Part shown: in pieces, positions 9,931 through 51,861 of the stretch
Numbering within the stretch: position 1 is the first letter of the stretch
How the letters are laid out: every line of letters begins with the position of its first letter
Origin: Bacteroidota bacterium
Lineage (GTDB): Bacteria > Bacteroidota > Bacteroidia > M30B66
NCBI GenBank assembly: GCA_027483445.1
Contig: JAIXUS010000069.1
Span: 1-64,000, forward strand
DNA: 64,000 nt
Reading direction: 5' to 3'
Notes under the pieces: generated by a model
Told to the model about the DNA's origin: nothing
What the model saw: only the letters and a program-made list of their open reading frames with translations
Databases searched by the model: none
Position numbers and translations under genes: made by a program

Positions 9931-11160
9931 GTGGGATTTTCCTGGTTTATCGCAAAAAGGCTGCTACAAAGCGGTAAGGGCCAAAAGCAACTGTCGACAC
10001 CCATTGTGCGCATTGCCATTGGTGGCATTGCCTTGGGCTTGTGTGTGATGATTGTTTCGGTGGCCATTGTAACCGGTTTCCAGCGGGAGATCAGGGCAAA
10101 AGTAATTGGATTCGGGGCTCATTTGCAGGTCATCAAATACGATTCCAACCGTTCGCTCGAAGCGGCACCCATCCAAACCAACGAGCCCTGGATGCAGGAG
10201 CTCAAAGCCTTGCCCGGACTCAGCGCTGTGTACTCGGTAAGCCGAAAGCCGGGCATCATAAAACAGGGCGACGCCATAGAAGGCGTGGTGTTCAAAGGAG
10301 TTTCCGATCCGGCGGCCATGGATTTCTTTGGCCGGCACCTTGAATCGGGACGATTGCCAAATGTGAATGGTCCGGAGCGCTCCAACGAAATACTCCTGTC
10401 ATCAACCCTCGCCAAACAACTGAAACTCAGCACCGACTCGAGCCTAATCATGTACTTTGTGCAAGATCCACCCAAGGCACGAAAGTTCACCATTTCGGGC
10501 ATTTACAATACAGGCCTGGGCGACAACGATTTCGACCGTGTGTATGTTGTAGGCGACGAACGTGTGGTGCAGCAGCTCAACCGTTGGGAACCGCAGCAAT
10601 CGGGCGCTTTGGAAATCATGATTCAGGATTTTCAACAGCTTAATGCCTTAAACGACGCGGTGTACAACCTCATTCCGGCCGAACTTACCAGCCAGAGCAT
10701 CGAAGAAGTATACCCGCAAATTTTTGGCTGGCTCGAGTTGATGGATACCAATGTGTACATCATTATTACGCTTATGCTTGTGGTTTCGGTCATCAACATG
10801 GTTACCTCGCTCCTCATTCTCATTTTGGAAAGGGTGCGCATGATTGGCATTTTGAAAGCGATGGGGGCCGACAACCGTCGTATTTCCGGGCTGTTTCTGC
10901 GGCAGGCTGCTGTATTGATTGCTACCGGAATGCTCATTGGCAATGTGGTCGGTTTATCGCTATGCCTCATTCAGGAAGCCACCGGTTGGATTAAGCTAAA
11001 CCGGGAAACCTATTATCTCACCGAGGTGCCTATAGCCCTTAATTTTCAGCTGATTCTTGGGCTTAACCTGCTTACGTTTGCCGTATGCATGCTGAGCATG
11101 CTGTTGCCTTCGTGGATGGTTTCGCGATTCAGGCCGGCCAAGAGTTTACGGTGGGGTTAA
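9931..11160 (+). CDS. ABC transporter permease, LolC/LolE-FtsX family
   Basis: 409 aa from a GTG start; an in-frame stop at 9922-9924 excludes any earlier start. Layout is that of LolC/E: an N-terminal membrane helix (IVRIAIGGIALGLCVMIVSV), a large periplasmic domain (about residues 50-265), and three C-terminal helices (VYIIITLMLVVSVINMVTSL, AAVLIATGMLIGNVVGLSLC, LILGLNLLTFAVCML) with LERVRMIGILKAMGA between them. Such permeases work with a LolD-type ATPase to move lipoproteins to the outer membrane; no ATPase gene is adjacent. Given the many lipoproteins here, a lipoprotein-sorting role is likely but not proven. Confidence 0.8.
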   Translation: MGFSWFIAKRLLQSGKGQKQLSTPIVRIAIGGIALGLCVMIVSVAIVTGFQREIRAKVIGFGAHLQVIKYDSNRSLEAAPIQTNEPWMQELKALPGLSAVYSVSRKPGIIKQGDAIEGVVFKGVSDPAAMDFFGRHLESGRLPNVNGPERSNEILLSSTLAKQLKLSTDSSLIMYFVQDPPKARKFTISGIYNTGLGDNDFDRVYVVGDERVVQQLNRWEPQQSGALEIMIQDFQQLNALNDAVYNLIPAELTSQSIEEVYPQIFGWLELMDTNVYIIITLMLVVSVINMVTSLLILILERVRMIGILKAMGADNRRISGLFLRQAAVLIATGMLIGNVVGLSLCLIQEATGWIKLNRETYYLTEVPIALNFQLILGLNLLTFAVCMLSMLLPSWMVSRFRPAKSLRWG

Positions 11161-11244: not shown

Positions 11245-12027
11245 TTACTCCGACTTCTGCCTTGCCGTCTTCAGATAATTCCCTACAAACGATTTCCCGG
11301 TCAACCCAAAATCGGCGACGGCCAGAAAAACCATATCCTCTGAGCTTTCATTTACACTTTGGTGCATACACCAGCGGGGAATAAACACCACGTCGCCCGG
11401 ATTTACCGGAAACCGGTGCTCATCGATGCGCACATAGCCTGAACCCCGATAAAATACAAACACGGTTTCGTGTGCGTGTTTATGCAGCTCGTTGGTTTTC
11501 CCGGGGGCAATACGCACAATTCTCGGATCGAGCAATTCGGTATTGAAGGGCAGGCGTGTTACCTGAAAATCAATGCCGAGCTTGTCTGACTGATTCTCAT
11601 ACAGCGAGGACTGATTGTGTTGGTCGATTCTAGCATGGTACTCCGGATTTTCACCCAATCCGGTTAAACTTTTCCGGGCATTAATCGCTTCAATTAACCC
11701 TTGAACCCTCAACATCTGCAAGCTATTCCAAATGGCCGAAGCCGAAGGAAGAAGGGCCTCAACCGGTTCGAAATGGTCATCAGGCTTTGCCAAAAACTGA
11801 AGCCAGGCCCTGGCCGCAGAAACATCGGTTTGGAGGGCCCTGCTGCTCAGGGTTTTCACCGAAATGTACAGGTGCGAAAAACAGGCATCGAGCCCAACAA
11901 GGCTTCCACTCGTTTGCTGGTCTAAGGCATTTTGAACGGCCATTACACCTTGCCGAATCCATGCGAGTTCCGCATCGCTGAGCTGATGTTGCTTCAGGGC
12001 GGCAACAAACCAAGTAGAGCTTTCCAT
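11245..12027 (-). CDS. cupin-domain protein paired with a diiron oxidase
   Basis: 260 aa. Residues 1-150 are helical and unrecognised. Residues ~165-235 form a cupin: motif 1 LHKHAHETVFVFYRGSG has metal-binding His182, His184 and an acidic residue, and motif 2 PGDVVFIPRWCMHQSVN has His222. The protein therefore probably binds a metal such as Fe(II). It lies 3 nt downstream of the HDO gene and follows it in the same transcript. HDO followed by cupin is the order of the two catalytic domains in the fused N-nitrosating enzyme SznF. Its reaction here is unknown; a plain metal-binding or isomerase role is also possible. Confidence 0.75.
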   Translation of the reverse strand: MESSTWFVAALKQHQLSDAELAWIRQGVMAVQNALDQQTSGSLVGLDACFSHLYISVKTLSSRALQTDVSAARAWLQFLAKPDDHFEPVEALLPSASAIWNSLQMLRVQGLIEAINARKSLTGLGENPEYHARIDQHNQSSLYENQSDKLGIDFQVTRLPFNTELLDPRIVRIAPGKTNELHKHAHETVFVFYRGSGYVRIDEHRFPVNPGDVVFIPRWCMHQSVNESSEDMVFLAVADFGLTGKSFVGNYLKTARQKSE

Positions 12028-12030
12028 GAT

Positions 12031-12828
12031 TTAGAATTTTTCGGCCCGCAGGAGCATGTCGTCCCAATAGGCTGCACGCAGATTTAAGGCTTTTAGCATA
12101 CCTTTTCTCAGGCTTTGGGCCGAGAAATTGTCGTGTGAGGCCAACTCTTCGGCAATGTTAAGCAGAATCAACCCATGCTCGTCGTCCACCTCGGTGTGCA
12201 GGGGGAAAAACACGTATTGCTCAAGACTCAAATCGGTGTGCTTTCGAATGGCGTCGATGATATACCGGTAGATGTGTTTAACCACCGACTCTGTTCCAAT
12301 TCCAATGGCACCCACGGCTTCGGCCGCGTTGGCCTGCTGTATGAGACCAAAAAACGATTCACGCCAAATTTGCACTTCAATGCCGGGCTGTGATGATGCA
12401 TCAACGCCCATGGCATCCTGGAAACGACGAAACAATTGCGGGTGAGGAATGCCCTGAACCCAACTTTCGTCAATGCCGAGCTTTTGAATTTCAGCAATGT
12501 CATCGGCATGCAAATGCCCGGTCTCTTCGGCCAGATTGTCTAACAACAACGTTCTGTGCTCTGCACTTTCCAGTTTTGAAATTACACCGGTTAAATAACG
12601 TGGAAACCAGGCACTGTAAGCTCCATACTGAGTGGCGAAGTCCTTCAATACAGCTGGCATATTTTGAAATTTACCATTTGCAAGGAGCTGAAGATAGGGA
12701 TGATTCACCGCACGGTGATTCAACGCTTCCTCTAAAAGATGCTGCATAACTATAGATTTTTCGGCCGTGCAAGTTTCACCCTCTGGTGATAATGACAATA
12801 GCGATTGAACCTCATTTTTCGCGTTCAT
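12031..12828 (-). CDS. haem-oxygenase-like diiron oxidase (HDO superfamily)
   Basis: 265 aa from the ATG at 12828; an in-frame ATG at 12867 would add 13 residues (MHLLRFKAVKWFV) that do not look like part of the fold. Numbered from 12867, the diiron ligand set of HDO enzymes is complete: E115-x2-H118 (in NLAEETGH), E183 (in AAEAVGAIGIG), and H224-x3-D228-x2-H231 (in FPLHTEVDDEHG). The last spacing matches that of UndA-type enzymes. The protein is all-helical and of typical family length. HDOs oxidise amines, fatty acids or arginine-derived substrates; the substrate here is unknown. The downstream cupin gene suggests a two-enzyme step. Confidence 0.82.
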   Translation of the reverse strand: MNAKNEVQSLLSLSPEGETCTAEKSIVMQHLLEEALNHRAVNHPYLQLLANGKFQNMPAVLKDFATQYGAYSAWFPRYLTGVISKLESAEHRTLLLDNLAEETGHLHADDIAEIQKLGIDESWVQGIPHPQLFRRFQDAMGVDASSQPGIEVQIWRESFFGLIQQANAAEAVGAIGIGTESVVKHIYRYIIDAIRKHTDLSLEQYVFFPLHTEVDDEHGLILLNIAEELASHDNFSAQSLRKGMLKALNLRAAYWDDMLLRAEKF

Positions 12829-12967
12829 GACAAACCATTTTACGGCCTTGAAACGCAACAGATGCAAGAATGTTTGTTTACACGCTGCTTACTACTGCAC
12901 AAGCACTCTTTGCCGCCTCGTGAGACACCTCCAGCGTGTTTATCCTTTTATCTTTACCCTTTGAAAA

Positions 12968-47708: not shown

Positions 47709-48662
47709 TTAAAGAACCCTCGATCCAGCAGCCTTCAACACATTGCCCTGCCCCGAATGCACCGCATAGGTAAACCCGCTTTGCAAGGCAAAGGCCCCGT
47801 GGTTGCCATCCCGCCGTATGGCGATAAAACCCACCTGAATTTCTTTTAAACGGTGCTTCTGGCGCTTGTAAACACGCTCCACGGCCTCTTCGCAGGCCTC
47901 TTGGGCTGTTCTGCCCTGACGCATCAACTCCACCACCAAATGGCAGCCAGCAATGCGAATCACCTCCTCGCCGTGACCGGTCGCGGTAGCTGCACCAATC
48001 TCGCCATCGACATACAAACCGGCCCCAATGATGGGCGAATCTCCCACCCGGCCGTGCATCTTAAAGGCCATACCCGACGTTGTGCAAGCCCCCGAAAGCC
48101 GACCTGCCGCGTCTATCGCAATAATGCCAATGGTATCGTGGTTCTCGATGTTTACCTTGGGCTTGTATTCCGACTTTTTCAGCCACTCCTTCCACTCGGC
48201 TTCCGACTCAGGCGTGAGGAGATTCTCCTTCTGAAAGCCGCGGCTTAAGGCAAACTGCAAAGCGCCATCACCCACCAGCATTACATGGGGCGTGTGCTCC
48301 ATAACCGCCCGGGCTACCGAAACCGGGTGCTTGATAAACTCCAGCGCCGCCACAGAGCCAATCCCGAGGTTTTCGTTCATTACGCAGGCATCTAAAGTAA
48401 CACGCCCATCGCGGTCGGGACGGCCACCGTAACCCACAGAGCGCTCATTGGGGTCGGCTTCTACCAATCGAGCCCCGGCCTCTACCGCATCTAACGCATA
48501 GCCCCCTTTTGAAAGCAGCTTCCAGGCCTCAGCGTTGGCCTGTAACCCAAAATTCCAGGTAGAAAGCACCAGCGGACCGAGCTCGCCGGCCATGAGTGAA
48601 CCCGCCAGAGGAAGCACACCCGCCGAAAAGGCACTCTTTTGAAGGAAGATTCTTCTGTTCAT
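47709..48662 (-). CDS. N4-(beta-N-acetylglucosaminyl)-L-asparaginase (glycosylasparaginase)
   Basis: 317 aa with a Tat-like/Sec leader (MNRRIFLQKSAFSAGVLPLA). Ntn-hydrolase of the asparaginase-2 family: the autocatalytic cleavage site is NHDTIGIIAID with nucleophile Thr177, followed by SGACTTSGMAFKMHGRVGDS and GLYVDGEIGAATATGHGEEV, all typical of glycosylasparaginases. WNFGLQANAEAW is the N-terminal substrate region. It hydrolyses the bond between GlcNAc and Asn after proteolysis of N-glycoproteins. Last gene of a run with the ROK kinase and GH20, which supports GlcNAc salvage from glycoproteins. Confidence 0.9.
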   Translation of the reverse strand: MNRRIFLQKSAFSAGVLPLAGSLMAGELGPLVLSTWNFGLQANAEAWKLLSKGGYALDAVEAGARLVEADPNERSVGYGGRPDRDGRVTLDACVMNENLGIGSVAALEFIKHPVSVARAVMEHTPHVMLVGDGALQFALSRGFQKENLLTPESEAEWKEWLKKSEYKPKVNIENHDTIGIIAIDAAGRLSGACTTSGMAFKMHGRVGDSPIIGAGLYVDGEIGAATATGHGEEVIRIAGCHLVVELMRQGRTAQEACEEAVERVYKRQKHRLKEIQVGFIAIRRDGNHGAFALQSGFTYAVHSGQGNVLKAAGSRVL

Positions 48663-48667
48663 GCGAA

Positions 48668-50920
48668 TCAGTAAACTGCAATTTCATCCAAAAATAACCA
48701 CGACTTCTTGCCAGCACCCGGCGCTCCCTGAGGGATTAACCCTGCATTCTTTATATCAAATCGAATGTAGCGCATCGGTTGTGCACTTTCCGCTTCATAA
48801 ATCCAACAACGTTTACCTTTCCACACCTTCTGAGGCAACCATGGCCGCCAGGTTTTCCCGTCAAACGATGTGCTGATAACTGCAGTATCCGGCGCATAAA
48901 TCCAGTTCAGTGGATCGTGCAGCGAACCAAGGTTTACCCGACTTATTTCCTTCGTTATACCAAAATCGATTTCAACCATTACATCTTCGCCACTCCAGGC
49001 CAGCCATTCATTATTAACTCTGGGTAAAACGCCCTCCAATCCATCCACCAGCGTAAACCCGCCCTTACCGGGATAATGCTCCGATGGGGGAACGCTGAGC
49101 TTTACTGGCTTACCCGAAGCCTCATGAACCAGAACCCTCATTTCGGCAACGGCTGATTCTCCACTATGCTGCGGCCAAACCTTCAGTAAGCGCTCTCCCA
49201 AACGCTCGGTGGAAATGGGAATGAACCCCAGTTTCACTGGTCGGCTTTCGCCTCTGTCCCATGCGAAAACACAAGGCTGCTGTGCCTTCACCCGAAAACC
49301 CGCAATGCCGTTCAGTGTGTCGGGACTTATTTCTGGACGCAGATAGCTTCTTGAATAGTTCAGCTCCATGCGATCCCAATGGTTTCGTAAACTGTTGAGC
49401 CGACCGAGAAACTCGCTGTAATCGGTTTCTCCGGGGCCGGTCCATAGCACCTCTGCCAATGCGCTCAACCGGGGCAAAGCCATACGTTCCAAATCGGCCG
49501 GAGTGTTGATGTACTCCGTCCACACATTGCCTTGTGCACCCAGAATGAACGCCTCTGCCGACTTGCCTTTCAGGGTTTCAGGAACCGGGTCGAACTGCAG
49601 AACCTTCTCCAGCGTGGTTAAACCACCAATGGCCACCGGCTCCTGACGTGGGTCGGCCTGGTAATGGTCGAAATAACAATGCGAACCGGGGCTCATCACC
49701 ACCGGGTGATTTTGTGAGGCGGCGGCAATGCCCCCCTCGGTGCCCCGCCAACTCATTACTGCTGCATTGGGTGCCAGTCCGCCTTCGAGAATCTCATCCC
49801 AACCAATAATCTGCCGGCCACGGCTGTTCACAAAGCGCTCGATGCGCTGTATGAAGTAACTCTGCAGTTCATGTCCATCCTTAAGGCCTTCATCGCGCAT
49901 GCATTTCTTGCACTTTTCGCAGGACTCCCAGCGGGTTTTCGGACATTCATCGCCGCCAATGTGGATGTACTTGCCCGGAAAGAGGAGCATAACCTCATCG
50001 AGCACCTGTTGCAAAAAACCGAAGGTATTCTCGGTCGGACAAAACACATCGTCGAAAACACCCCAGCCGCGCTCCACTTCAAACGGGCCTCCGGTGCATG
50101 AAAATTCCGGATATGCGGCAAGTGCGGCCTTGGCATGACCGGGCATTTCAATTTCCGGAACAATGGTCACATGGCGCTCGCGGGCATAGGCAACCACCTG
50201 CTTAACGTCTTCCTGGGTGTAAAATCCACCATAGCGGAGGCTGTCGAAACGTTGCTCGCTGTAATGTCCTACCATACTTCCTTTTCGCCACGCGCCCACT
50301 TCGGTGAGTTTGGGGAAAGATTTAATCTCAATTCTCCAGCCCTGATCATCGGTCAAATGCCAATGAAAGGTGTTCATCTTGTGCATGGCCAGCAGGTCGA
50401 TGTAGCGCTTGATGAACTCAACCGGAAAGAAGTGGCGGCTCACATCGAGGTGCATGCCTCGCCACTGAAACCGGGGGTAATCCTCATCAATCGAAAAGGC
50501 ATGCAGTACAATACTTTGGTTGGGGCCGGGCTTGAGTTGCTGCATCATCGACTGTACGCCATAAAATGCCCCTTTTGGATCGATCGCTTGAATAATGGAA
50601 CCCGAAGCCGAGGTGCGAATGCTATACCAGCCCTCTGGCAGCAACGTGTCGGCTTTTATCCGGCTAAGCCTGATGGCAGGAGTCTTTTGCGGAGCGCGAC
50701 CGGCCTCAACCGGAGCACTGGCGCTGAGGCTAGCGAGATACGCGCGCAGCATTCGGGCTTCCGATTTAAACATGGGGTCGTCGAAAGTAACTGTGGCCAG
50801 GGTATAATCGAACCGTTCGGAATCGTAGCTAACCTGTTGAGGCTGAGGAATAATAAAGCCTTGCTGAGCCTTTACTTGCAGCCACAGCAGCACAAATGCG
50901 GCAATCAATGAGGTTTTCAT
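48668..50920 (-). CDS. GH20 beta-N-acetylhexosaminidase
   Basis: 750 aa. Signal peptide MKTSLIAAFVLLWLQVKAQ; GH20b domain at ~25-145; TIM barrel at ~150-510 with RGMHLDVSRHFFPVEFIKRY, KMNTFHWHLTDDQGWRIEIK, and the catalytic pair Asp324-Glu325 in HIGGDECPKTRWE (substrate-assisted mechanism). A C-terminal ~200-residue region carries a discoidin-like module (ISRVNLGSLHDPLNWIYAP). It removes terminal GlcNAc or GalNAc from glycans or chitin oligomers in the periplasm or at the surface. Start overlaps the ROK gene stop (4 nt), so the two are coupled. Confidence 0.93.
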   Translation of the reverse strand: MKTSLIAAFVLLWLQVKAQQGFIIPQPQQVSYDSERFDYTLATVTFDDPMFKSEARMLRAYLASLSASAPVEAGRAPQKTPAIRLSRIKADTLLPEGWYSIRTSASGSIIQAIDPKGAFYGVQSMMQQLKPGPNQSIVLHAFSIDEDYPRFQWRGMHLDVSRHFFPVEFIKRYIDLLAMHKMNTFHWHLTDDQGWRIEIKSFPKLTEVGAWRKGSMVGHYSEQRFDSLRYGGFYTQEDVKQVVAYARERHVTIVPEIEMPGHAKAALAAYPEFSCTGGPFEVERGWGVFDDVFCPTENTFGFLQQVLDEVMLLFPGKYIHIGGDECPKTRWESCEKCKKCMRDEGLKDGHELQSYFIQRIERFVNSRGRQIIGWDEILEGGLAPNAAVMSWRGTEGGIAAASQNHPVVMSPGSHCYFDHYQADPRQEPVAIGGLTTLEKVLQFDPVPETLKGKSAEAFILGAQGNVWTEYINTPADLERMALPRLSALAEVLWTGPGETDYSEFLGRLNSLRNHWDRMELNYSRSYLRPEISPDTLNGIAGFRVKAQQPCVFAWDRGESRPVKLGFIPISTERLGERLLKVWPQHSGESAVAEMRVLVHEASGKPVKLSVPPSEHYPGKGGFTLVDGLEGVLPRVNNEWLAWSGEDVMVEIDFGITKEISRVNLGSLHDPLNWIYAPDTAVISTSFDGKTWRPWLPQKVWKGKRCWIYEAESAQPMRYIRFDIKNAGLIPQGAPGAGKKSWLFLDEIAVY

Positions 50921-51861
50921 GGAGCAGCTTCACGGTTAAACACCAGCGAGGCCGAACCGAGTAAGGCGGCGTCGCTTTCGTGGAGCGAAGAAACCTCAAT
51001 TTTAATCTTGTTTCGGTAAATGTTGAGCAGATTGGCTTCAAATGAGGCTTTCACCGGATTGAGCAATAGGTCGCCGGCTTTTACCAAGCCACCAAAGAGT
51101 ATGATTTTCTCGGGTTGGGTAACGGCTACAAAGTTGGCCAGCGCATAACCGAGCATCTCGCCAGTAAAACGATAGGCCTCACGGGCTTCGGCTTCACCTT
51201 CAAGCGCTAAACGGGTAATTTCTCGAGCATCTGCTGTTTCCGAGGCATTCGGCTTAAGCTCGCGATAAGTTCGTACAATGCCGGTGGCCGAGCAATAGGT
51301 CTCGAGACAGCCATGACGGCCGCATCCACACAGGCGGCCATCACGCTCTATGAGCACATGTCCGAGTTCACCGGCAAAACCTTCATGGCCGTAAATCATG
51401 CGACCGTTGGCCACAATTCCGCTTCCCAAACCTGTGCCGAGGGTTATCACAATAAAGTTTCGACATCCGCGGGCAGCGCCAAAAAACTGCTCACCCAAAG
51501 CAGCAGCCTTGGCATCGTTGGTAAGCTCGGTATGCACGCCGAGGGCCGTTGAGAAAAGGTCGCGAAGCGGAACTACACCCTGCCAATTCAAATTGGGGGC
51601 ATACTCTACTGTGCCGCGGTATGGATTGGCATTGGGCGCACCCACACCGGCTCCGCTTAATTTCAGGCCCGGGTAGCTTTTCGAAAGTTCGCGCACCTGC
51701 GCGTGGATGGCTTCACTCACGGTCTCAACCAGCGACTTCGCGTCGGGAAAACTGCGTGTAGGCTGGGTACCTTTTACGAGGACCTTTCCCGATTCACTCA
51801 CCAATCCAAATGCGGTATTGGTTCCGCCAATATCAATTCCTGCTGCAACGTGGTTCATCAA
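50917..51861 (-). CDS. ROK-family sugar kinase, probable N-acetylglucosamine kinase
   Basis: 314 aa (second Met at 51858 equally possible). ATP-binding GIDIGGTNTAFGLV, catalytic Asp116 in LTNDAKAAALGE, ATPase loop VITLGTGLGSGIV, and the ROK zinc motif GHVLIERDGRLCGCGRHGCL with Cys178, Cys180 and Cys185. E-G-HEGFAGELGH (~159-168) carries the Glu and His that contact the sugar in NagK and glucokinase relatives. Its place upstream of GH20 and glycosylasparaginase favours GlcNAc as substrate; glucose or N-acetylmannosamine cannot be excluded. Confidence 0.9.
   Translation of the reverse strand: MMNHVAAGIDIGGTNTAFGLVSESGKVLVKGTQPTRSFPDAKSLVETVSEAIHAQVRELSKSYPGLKLSGAGVGAPNANPYRGTVEYAPNLNWQGVVPLRDLFSTALGVHTELTNDAKAAALGEQFFGAARGCRNFIVITLGTGLGSGIVANGRMIYGHEGFAGELGHVLIERDGRLCGCGRHGCLETYCSATGIVRTYRELKPNASETADAREITRLALEGEAEAREAYRFTGEMLGYALANFVAVTQPEKIILFGGLVKAGDLLLNPVKASFEANLLNIYRNKIKIEVSSLHESDAALLGSASLVFNREAAP

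What the first reader, a model, noticed from the sequence alone, without database searches (positions are those of the whole stretch)
11245..12867. Split SznF-like pair: haem-oxygenase-like diiron oxidase followed by a cupin protein
The HDO protein keeps the full diiron ligand pattern (E-x2-H, E, H-x3-D-x2-H). The next gene, 3 nt downstream, encodes a cupin with intact HxH and distal His. The N-nitrosating enzyme SznF carries exactly these two domain types in this order in one chain. Two separate genes could be an ancestral or alternative two-protein form, possibly for N-oxidation of an amino-acid-derived compound. No other biosynthetic gene is nearby, so the chemistry is open.
Basis: partly seen in the sequence, partly recalled or inferred. 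Interest (0 to 1): 0.7.

Follow-up and report, generated by a model that had tools for sequence, protein, structure and literature searches.

The report
Paired iron oxidase and cupin genes
Two neighbouring genes in a Bacteroidota genome encode a diiron-type oxidase and a cupin that relatives keep side by side and that cyanobacteria carry fused into one protein, so they probably work as a two-step oxidation unit for an unknown small molecule, resembling the streptozotocin enzyme SznF in layout but not in close ancestry.

Summary
The two genes are real, intact, on the minus strand and under purifying selection. The HDO starts at 12747, not 12867. The HDO-cupin link holds: the genes are adjacent in about 16 Bacteroidota loci, fused in one 503-aa protein in four Microcystis genomes, and the same cupin family is fused to a second, distant HDO clade in other cyanobacteria. 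SznF membership fails: the HDO is a CADD/BesC-type 3-His/3-carboxylate enzyme with Phe where SznF has its extra Glu, and SznF is not recovered by sequence or among the top 50 folds. Relatives add a SAM methyltransferase, a TauD-family Fe/2OG oxygenase and sometimes a flavin/2Fe-2S reductase; this genome lacks the first two. In several cyanobacteria and one Saprospiraceae genome, related HDO genes lie beside H-NOX nitric-oxide-sensor genes, a lead toward N-oxide chemistry. Best reading: a split, two-site, two-step oxidase. New variant of a known kind; substrate unknown.

The parts
12031..12747 (-). HDO gene (238 aa), 3-His/3-carboxylate dimetal oxidase; ORF formally open to TTG 12867 but true start most likely ATG 12747
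12523..12525 (-). HDO ligand E75 (core helix 1)
   Evidence: invariant 35/35
12442..12444 (-). HDO ligand H102, after an interrupted core helix 1; aligns with the motif His of CADD and BesC
   Evidence: invariant 35/35; profile alignment; model helix restarts at 102
12514..12516 (-).
   Evidence: His in 16/35
12289..12291 (-). HDO ligand E153 (core helix 2)
   Evidence: invariant 35/35
12175..12198 (-). HDO motif HTEVDDEH: ligands H184, D188, H191 (core helix 3)
   Evidence: H184/H191 35/35; D 32 and E 3 of 35 at 188
12028..12030 (-). 3-nt gap between HDO stop and cupin start; in relatives from an overlap of about 11 nt to a gap of 12 nt, or fused
11245..12027 (-). Cupin gene (260 aa): five-helix N-terminal region (residues 3-117) plus C-terminal 3-His cupin barrel
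11476..11484 (-). Cupin metal ligands H182 and H184 (H-K-H); the canonical cupin Glu position is T188
   Evidence: invariant in 18 sequences
11362..11364 (-). Cupin distal metal ligand H222
   Evidence: invariant in 18 sequences

Best explanation
The pair is a split two-site oxidase. The HDO binds a diiron (or Fe/Mn) cofactor with three His and three carboxylates and uses O2 to oxidise an amine- or amino-acid-type substrate. The product is passed to the adjacent cupin, whose single three-His metal site carries out a second oxidation or rearrangement. In other members the two parts are one polypeptide, and a SAM methyltransferase and a TauD-family Fe/2OG oxygenase, with a flavin/2Fe-2S reductase as a likely electron donor, complete a small pathway. 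Shown: conserved ligand sets, adjacency, natural fusions, linked pathway genes. Inferred: metal identity, sequential order, substrate. N-oxygenation is the likeliest first chemistry among several; desaturation or C-C cleavage are also open.
For: Adjacent HDO-cupin in the window, G001, G003, G004, G007, G021, G100, G215 and L037, L039, L041-L046. 503-aa natural HDO-cupin fusion in four Microcystis genomes, C-terminal half 41-50% identical to the split cupins. A second fusion lineage in cyanobacteria, L087-L090: cupin part about 45% identical, HDO part only 20-27%, so the same cupin family is joined to two distant HDO clades. HDO and cupin distances are correlated in 13 pairs, r 0.78, 0 of 5000 permutations. 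Where an HDO of the main clade lacked an adjacent cupin (L036, L038, L059), the genome had the cupin elsewhere. Six HDO ligands conserved. HDO model pLDDT 94, best folds CADD and BesC. Methyltransferase and TauD next to the pair in Microcystis, L035 and L052; L052 is one run HDO-cupin-reductase-MT-TauD. A flavin/2Fe-2S reductase is the required partner of the HDO MboA (PMC13185094).
Against: No substrate is known. The window genome has no match to the methyltransferase or TauD families, so the full pathway is not present here. A branch of the same HDO family works beside MT and TauD with no cupin found in the genome (L032, L057, L058, L060, L061), so the cupin is not obligatory for the HDO. 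No complex could be modelled. Order of action is inferred from SznF only.
Confidence: 0.55

Rival explanations
1. True SznF family: N-hydroxylation of a guanidine by the HDO, then rearrangement to an N-nitroso product by the cupin.
For: Same two domain types in the same order, fused in Microcystis; cupin has the three His and no canonical Glu, as in SznF (H407, H409, H448); H-NOX NO-sensor genes beside related HDO genes.
Against: SznF not found by profile search at E up to 5 for the HDO or 0.5 for the cupin, nor in the top 50 folds. The E189 ligand is absent, F48 invariant (PMC11611611). Methyltransferase plus TauD is not the streptozotocin gene set.
Confidence: 0.12
2. HamA/HamB-like pair: separate HDO and cupin genes acting in a diazeniumdiolate pathway.
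For: hamA (haem-oxygenase-like) and hamB (cupin) are adjacent separate genes in the fragin cluster (PMC5878181, PMC11659414). The window HDO passes the DUF3050 cut-off; the solved HamA 9vwb is a DUF3050 protein.
Against: HamA is a much weaker fold match than CADD/BesC (TM 0.66) and E 0.077 by sequence. No AurF-like or NRPS gene accompanies the pair. hamB is dispensable for the valdiazen signal.
Confidence: 0.1
3. Desaturase-lyase or C-C cleaving HDO (BesC/UndA/FlcD type) followed by a gentisate-dioxygenase-like cupin that opens or oxidises the product.
For: BesC and UndA among the best folds; the cupin's best sequence matches are gentisate 1,2-dioxygenases.
Against: Cupin similarity covers only the barrel core; no residues of a known substrate pocket were tested.
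Confidence: 0.25
4. CADD-like self-sacrificing p-aminobenzoate synthase with an unrelated cupin.
For: CADD is the best fold and sequence match.
Against: The sacrificial residues are missing: CADD Y27 aligns with L19 and K152 with I163, read by hand from the alignments (residues named in PMC11965152); TIGR04305 score 63 against a cut-off of 200.
Confidence: 0.04

Closest known systems
SznF/StzF (streptozotocin N-nitrosating enzyme)
   Same: HDO domain followed by a three-His cupin; six core HDO ligands
   Different: No sequence relation detected; no E189-type seventh ligand; no N-terminal SznF domain; HDO and cupin split here, with a five-helix region preceding the cupin; different partner genes
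CADD (CT610) and BesC, 3H/3C HDO enzymes
   Same: Best fold and sequence matches for the HDO; same six-ligand set; core helix 1 interrupted by a loop as in CADD
   Different: About 20% identity; CADD sacrificial Tyr/Lys absent; extra insertion between E75 and H102; paired with a cupin
HamA-HamB of the fragin/valdiazen cluster
   Same: Adjacent, separate HDO-type and cupin genes
   Different: No NRPS or AurF-like gene; HDO only remotely related; cupin relation not tested
MboA-MboB (mangotoxin HDO and its reductase)
   Same: In L052, L037 and L043 a flavin/2Fe-2S reductase gene follows the HDO-cupin pair
   Different: Reductase is not adjacent in the window; only a 36% identical homologue on another contig

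Membership tests
HDO superfamily (3H/3C) | Glu and His from core helix 1, Glu from core helix 2, H-x3-D/E-x2-H from core helix 3 | tested here: met
   E75, H102, E153, H184, D/E188, H191 conserved in 35 sequences; fold match to CADD, BesC, UndA
HDO superfamily (3H/3C) | Binds two metals and reacts with O2 | not testable with these tools
   needs protein
SznF family | HDO and cupin in one chain, in that order | tested here: inconclusive
   split in the window, fused in Microcystis and L087-L090
SznF family | Detectable sequence relation to SznF | tested here: not met
   no SznF among matches; presence of SznF in the copy was not separately checked
SznF family | Seventh ligand E189 on the auxiliary helix (3H/4C) | tested here: not met
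   F48 invariant, no carboxylate at 44-52 in the window protein; position assigned by spacing and CADD alignment, without coordinates
SznF family | Cupin with three-His site | tested here: met
   H182, H184, H222 invariant; SznF H407, H409, H448
SznF family | N-nitrosation activity | not testable with these tools
   needs an assay
CADD pABA synthase | Sacrificial Tyr27 and Lys152 | tested here: not met
   L19 and I163 at the aligned positions (residues)
HamA/HamB | Cupin homologous to HamB | not tested
   HamB sequence not fetched

The most novel reading that the evidence does not exclude
A previously undescribed family of oxidase systems, split in Bacteroidota and fused in Microcystis and other cyanobacteria, in which an HDO and a cupin convert an amine into an N-oxide, N-nitroso or NO-releasing metabolite that is methylated and hydroxylated by neighbours and is tied to nitric-oxide sensing through adjacent H-NOX kinases in related loci.
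Probability: 0.22. Interest if true: 0.85.

Novelty: new variant of a known kind. Interest (0 to 1): 0.6.

Why it matters
HDO-cupin coupling was known mainly from SznF and, loosely, HamA/HamB. Here the coupling is made with a different HDO clade and joined to a methyltransferase, a Fe/2OG oxygenase and a reductase. Split and fused forms in Bacteroidota (many from lake or pond metagenomes by record title) and in bloom-forming Microcystis point to an unrecognised small-molecule pathway. The H-NOX neighbours of related HDO genes would make a link between such pathways and NO signalling testable.

Tried and rejected
E-x2-H as the ligand motif: rejected by conservation. A carboxylate at position 82 replacing the ligand His: considered from an early alignment, dropped once H102 was seen to align with the CADD and BesC motif His. 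Joint alignment of fusion and single proteins for structure prediction (A7): not used because cupin rows aligned to the HDO half. Viral contigs: no relatives of the cupin. Plasmids: one HDO-MT pair without cupin, Indioceanicola. The sigma-70 promoter scan found no more than shuffles. Papers: none found in the library ties H-NOX to HDO clusters.

Full report
The observation. Two ORFs lie on the minus strand: an HDO (stop 12031) and a cupin (11245-12027), 3 nt apart. Convergent and divergent genes flank them: an FtsX-type permease ending at 11160 and an esterase-like gene starting at about 12968. They therefore form an isolated two-gene unit. The ORF list starts the HDO at TTG 12867, but all homologues align from residue 40-41 on, and the 90%-identical copy of G004 has unrelated sequence upstream, so ATG 12747 is the likely start. 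Both genes are under purifying selection.

Metal sites. In 35 homologues E75, H102, E153, H184 and H191 never vary and position 188 is Asp or Glu. A profile search aligns the H102 segment with the motif His of CADD and of BesC, and the lineage-2 proteins, which lack the insertion, place their His directly there. The model (pLDDT 94) ends one helix at residue 75 and starts another at 102, as in CADD and SznF, where core helix 1 is interrupted by a loop (PMC11611611). At the position where SznF and RohS carry an extra Glu and AetD has Phe, this family has an invariant Phe (F48). By that reading it is a 3H/3C enzyme like UndA, BesC and AetD. The cupin barrel has H182, H184 and H222 invariant; the canonical motif Glu position is Thr. 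The N-terminal 117 residues of the cupin protein are predicted helical; that model is moderate overall (pLDDT 77).

The link between the two. The pair is adjacent in the window and in about fifteen other Bacteroidota loci. Four Microcystis genomes encode a 503-aa HDO-cupin fusion. Other cyanobacteria hold a second fusion, 385-463 aa, whose cupin part is about 45% identical to the window's but whose HDO is only 20-27% identical. HDO and cupin distances correlate (r 0.78). In the genomes of L036, L038 and L059 the cupin lies elsewhere or on another contig. A divergent HDO branch beside MT and TauD has no cupin detected in its genomes. In the tree the Microcystis fusions sit among split forms, but many forks are weak and the root is by midpoint.

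Pathway genes. A class I SAM methyltransferase and a TauD-family oxygenase accompany the HDO in Microcystis, L035, L036, L052, the cupin-less branch and a Planctomycetota genome. In L038, L039, L042, L044 and G001 they occur elsewhere in the genome. They were not detected in the window genome, estimated complete, nor in G003, G004, G021 or G100. The TauD proteins keep H-x-D and the distal His and resemble FrbJ, gamma-butyrobetaine dioxygenase and TmpA. In L052 a flavin/2Fe-2S reductase sits between cupin and MT; the HDO MboA needs such a partner (PMC13185094).

H-NOX lead. Haem-NO-binding genes with histidine-kinase partners lie beside HDO-MT pairs in G750, G849, G893, G926 and G927, beside the HDO-cupin fusion of G866, and about 3 kb from the HDO-MT-TauD cluster of G742. 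Of seven sampled cyanobacteria with H-NOX, six have it there; five of the seven were chosen because they carry HDO, and several are related, so no exact probability is claimed. Bacteroidota controls G011, G013 and G017 have H-NOX without HDO nearby. The window genome has no H-NOX. This is a lead, not evidence about the window pair itself.

Comparison. The layout works like SznF, but membership fails on sequence, on the seventh ligand and on the N-terminal domain. HamA/HamB is a precedent for separate HDO and cupin genes. No description of this family was found in the literature searched.

Verdict. A split two-site oxidase, mechanism inferred, substrate unknown; new variant of a known kind.

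Noticed in passing
L101, L104, L105, L133, L135, L136, L137: H-NOX and HNOBA histidine-kinase genes lie beside HDO-MT or HDO-cupin genes in several cyanobacteria and one Saprospiraceae genome.
   Followed up: partly
L054:8001-8744: HDO with an in-frame stop at codon 40 next to intact MT and TauD genes; the L062 HDO also looks broken.
   Followed up: no
L104, L105, L133, L135, L136: Cyanobacterial HDO-methyltransferase pairs without cupin or TauD next door: the methyltransferase family may be the most widely shared partner of these HDOs.
   Followed up: partly
L085:7908-9463: HDO-methyltransferase pair on an Indioceanicola profundi (Alphaproteobacteria) megaplasmid, unannotated in PLSDB.
   Followed up: no
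window 47709-51861: ROK-kinase, GH20-like and glycosylasparaginase-like block that in G007 lies directly beside the TauD-MT-HDO-cupin cluster (L016:2043-5524), 35 kb away here; names are from reading the sequences, not from a family search.
   Followed up: no
L052:2143-2739, L037:4988-5569, L036:8736-9338: GNAT acetyltransferase genes repeatedly close to the HDO gene.
   Followed up: no
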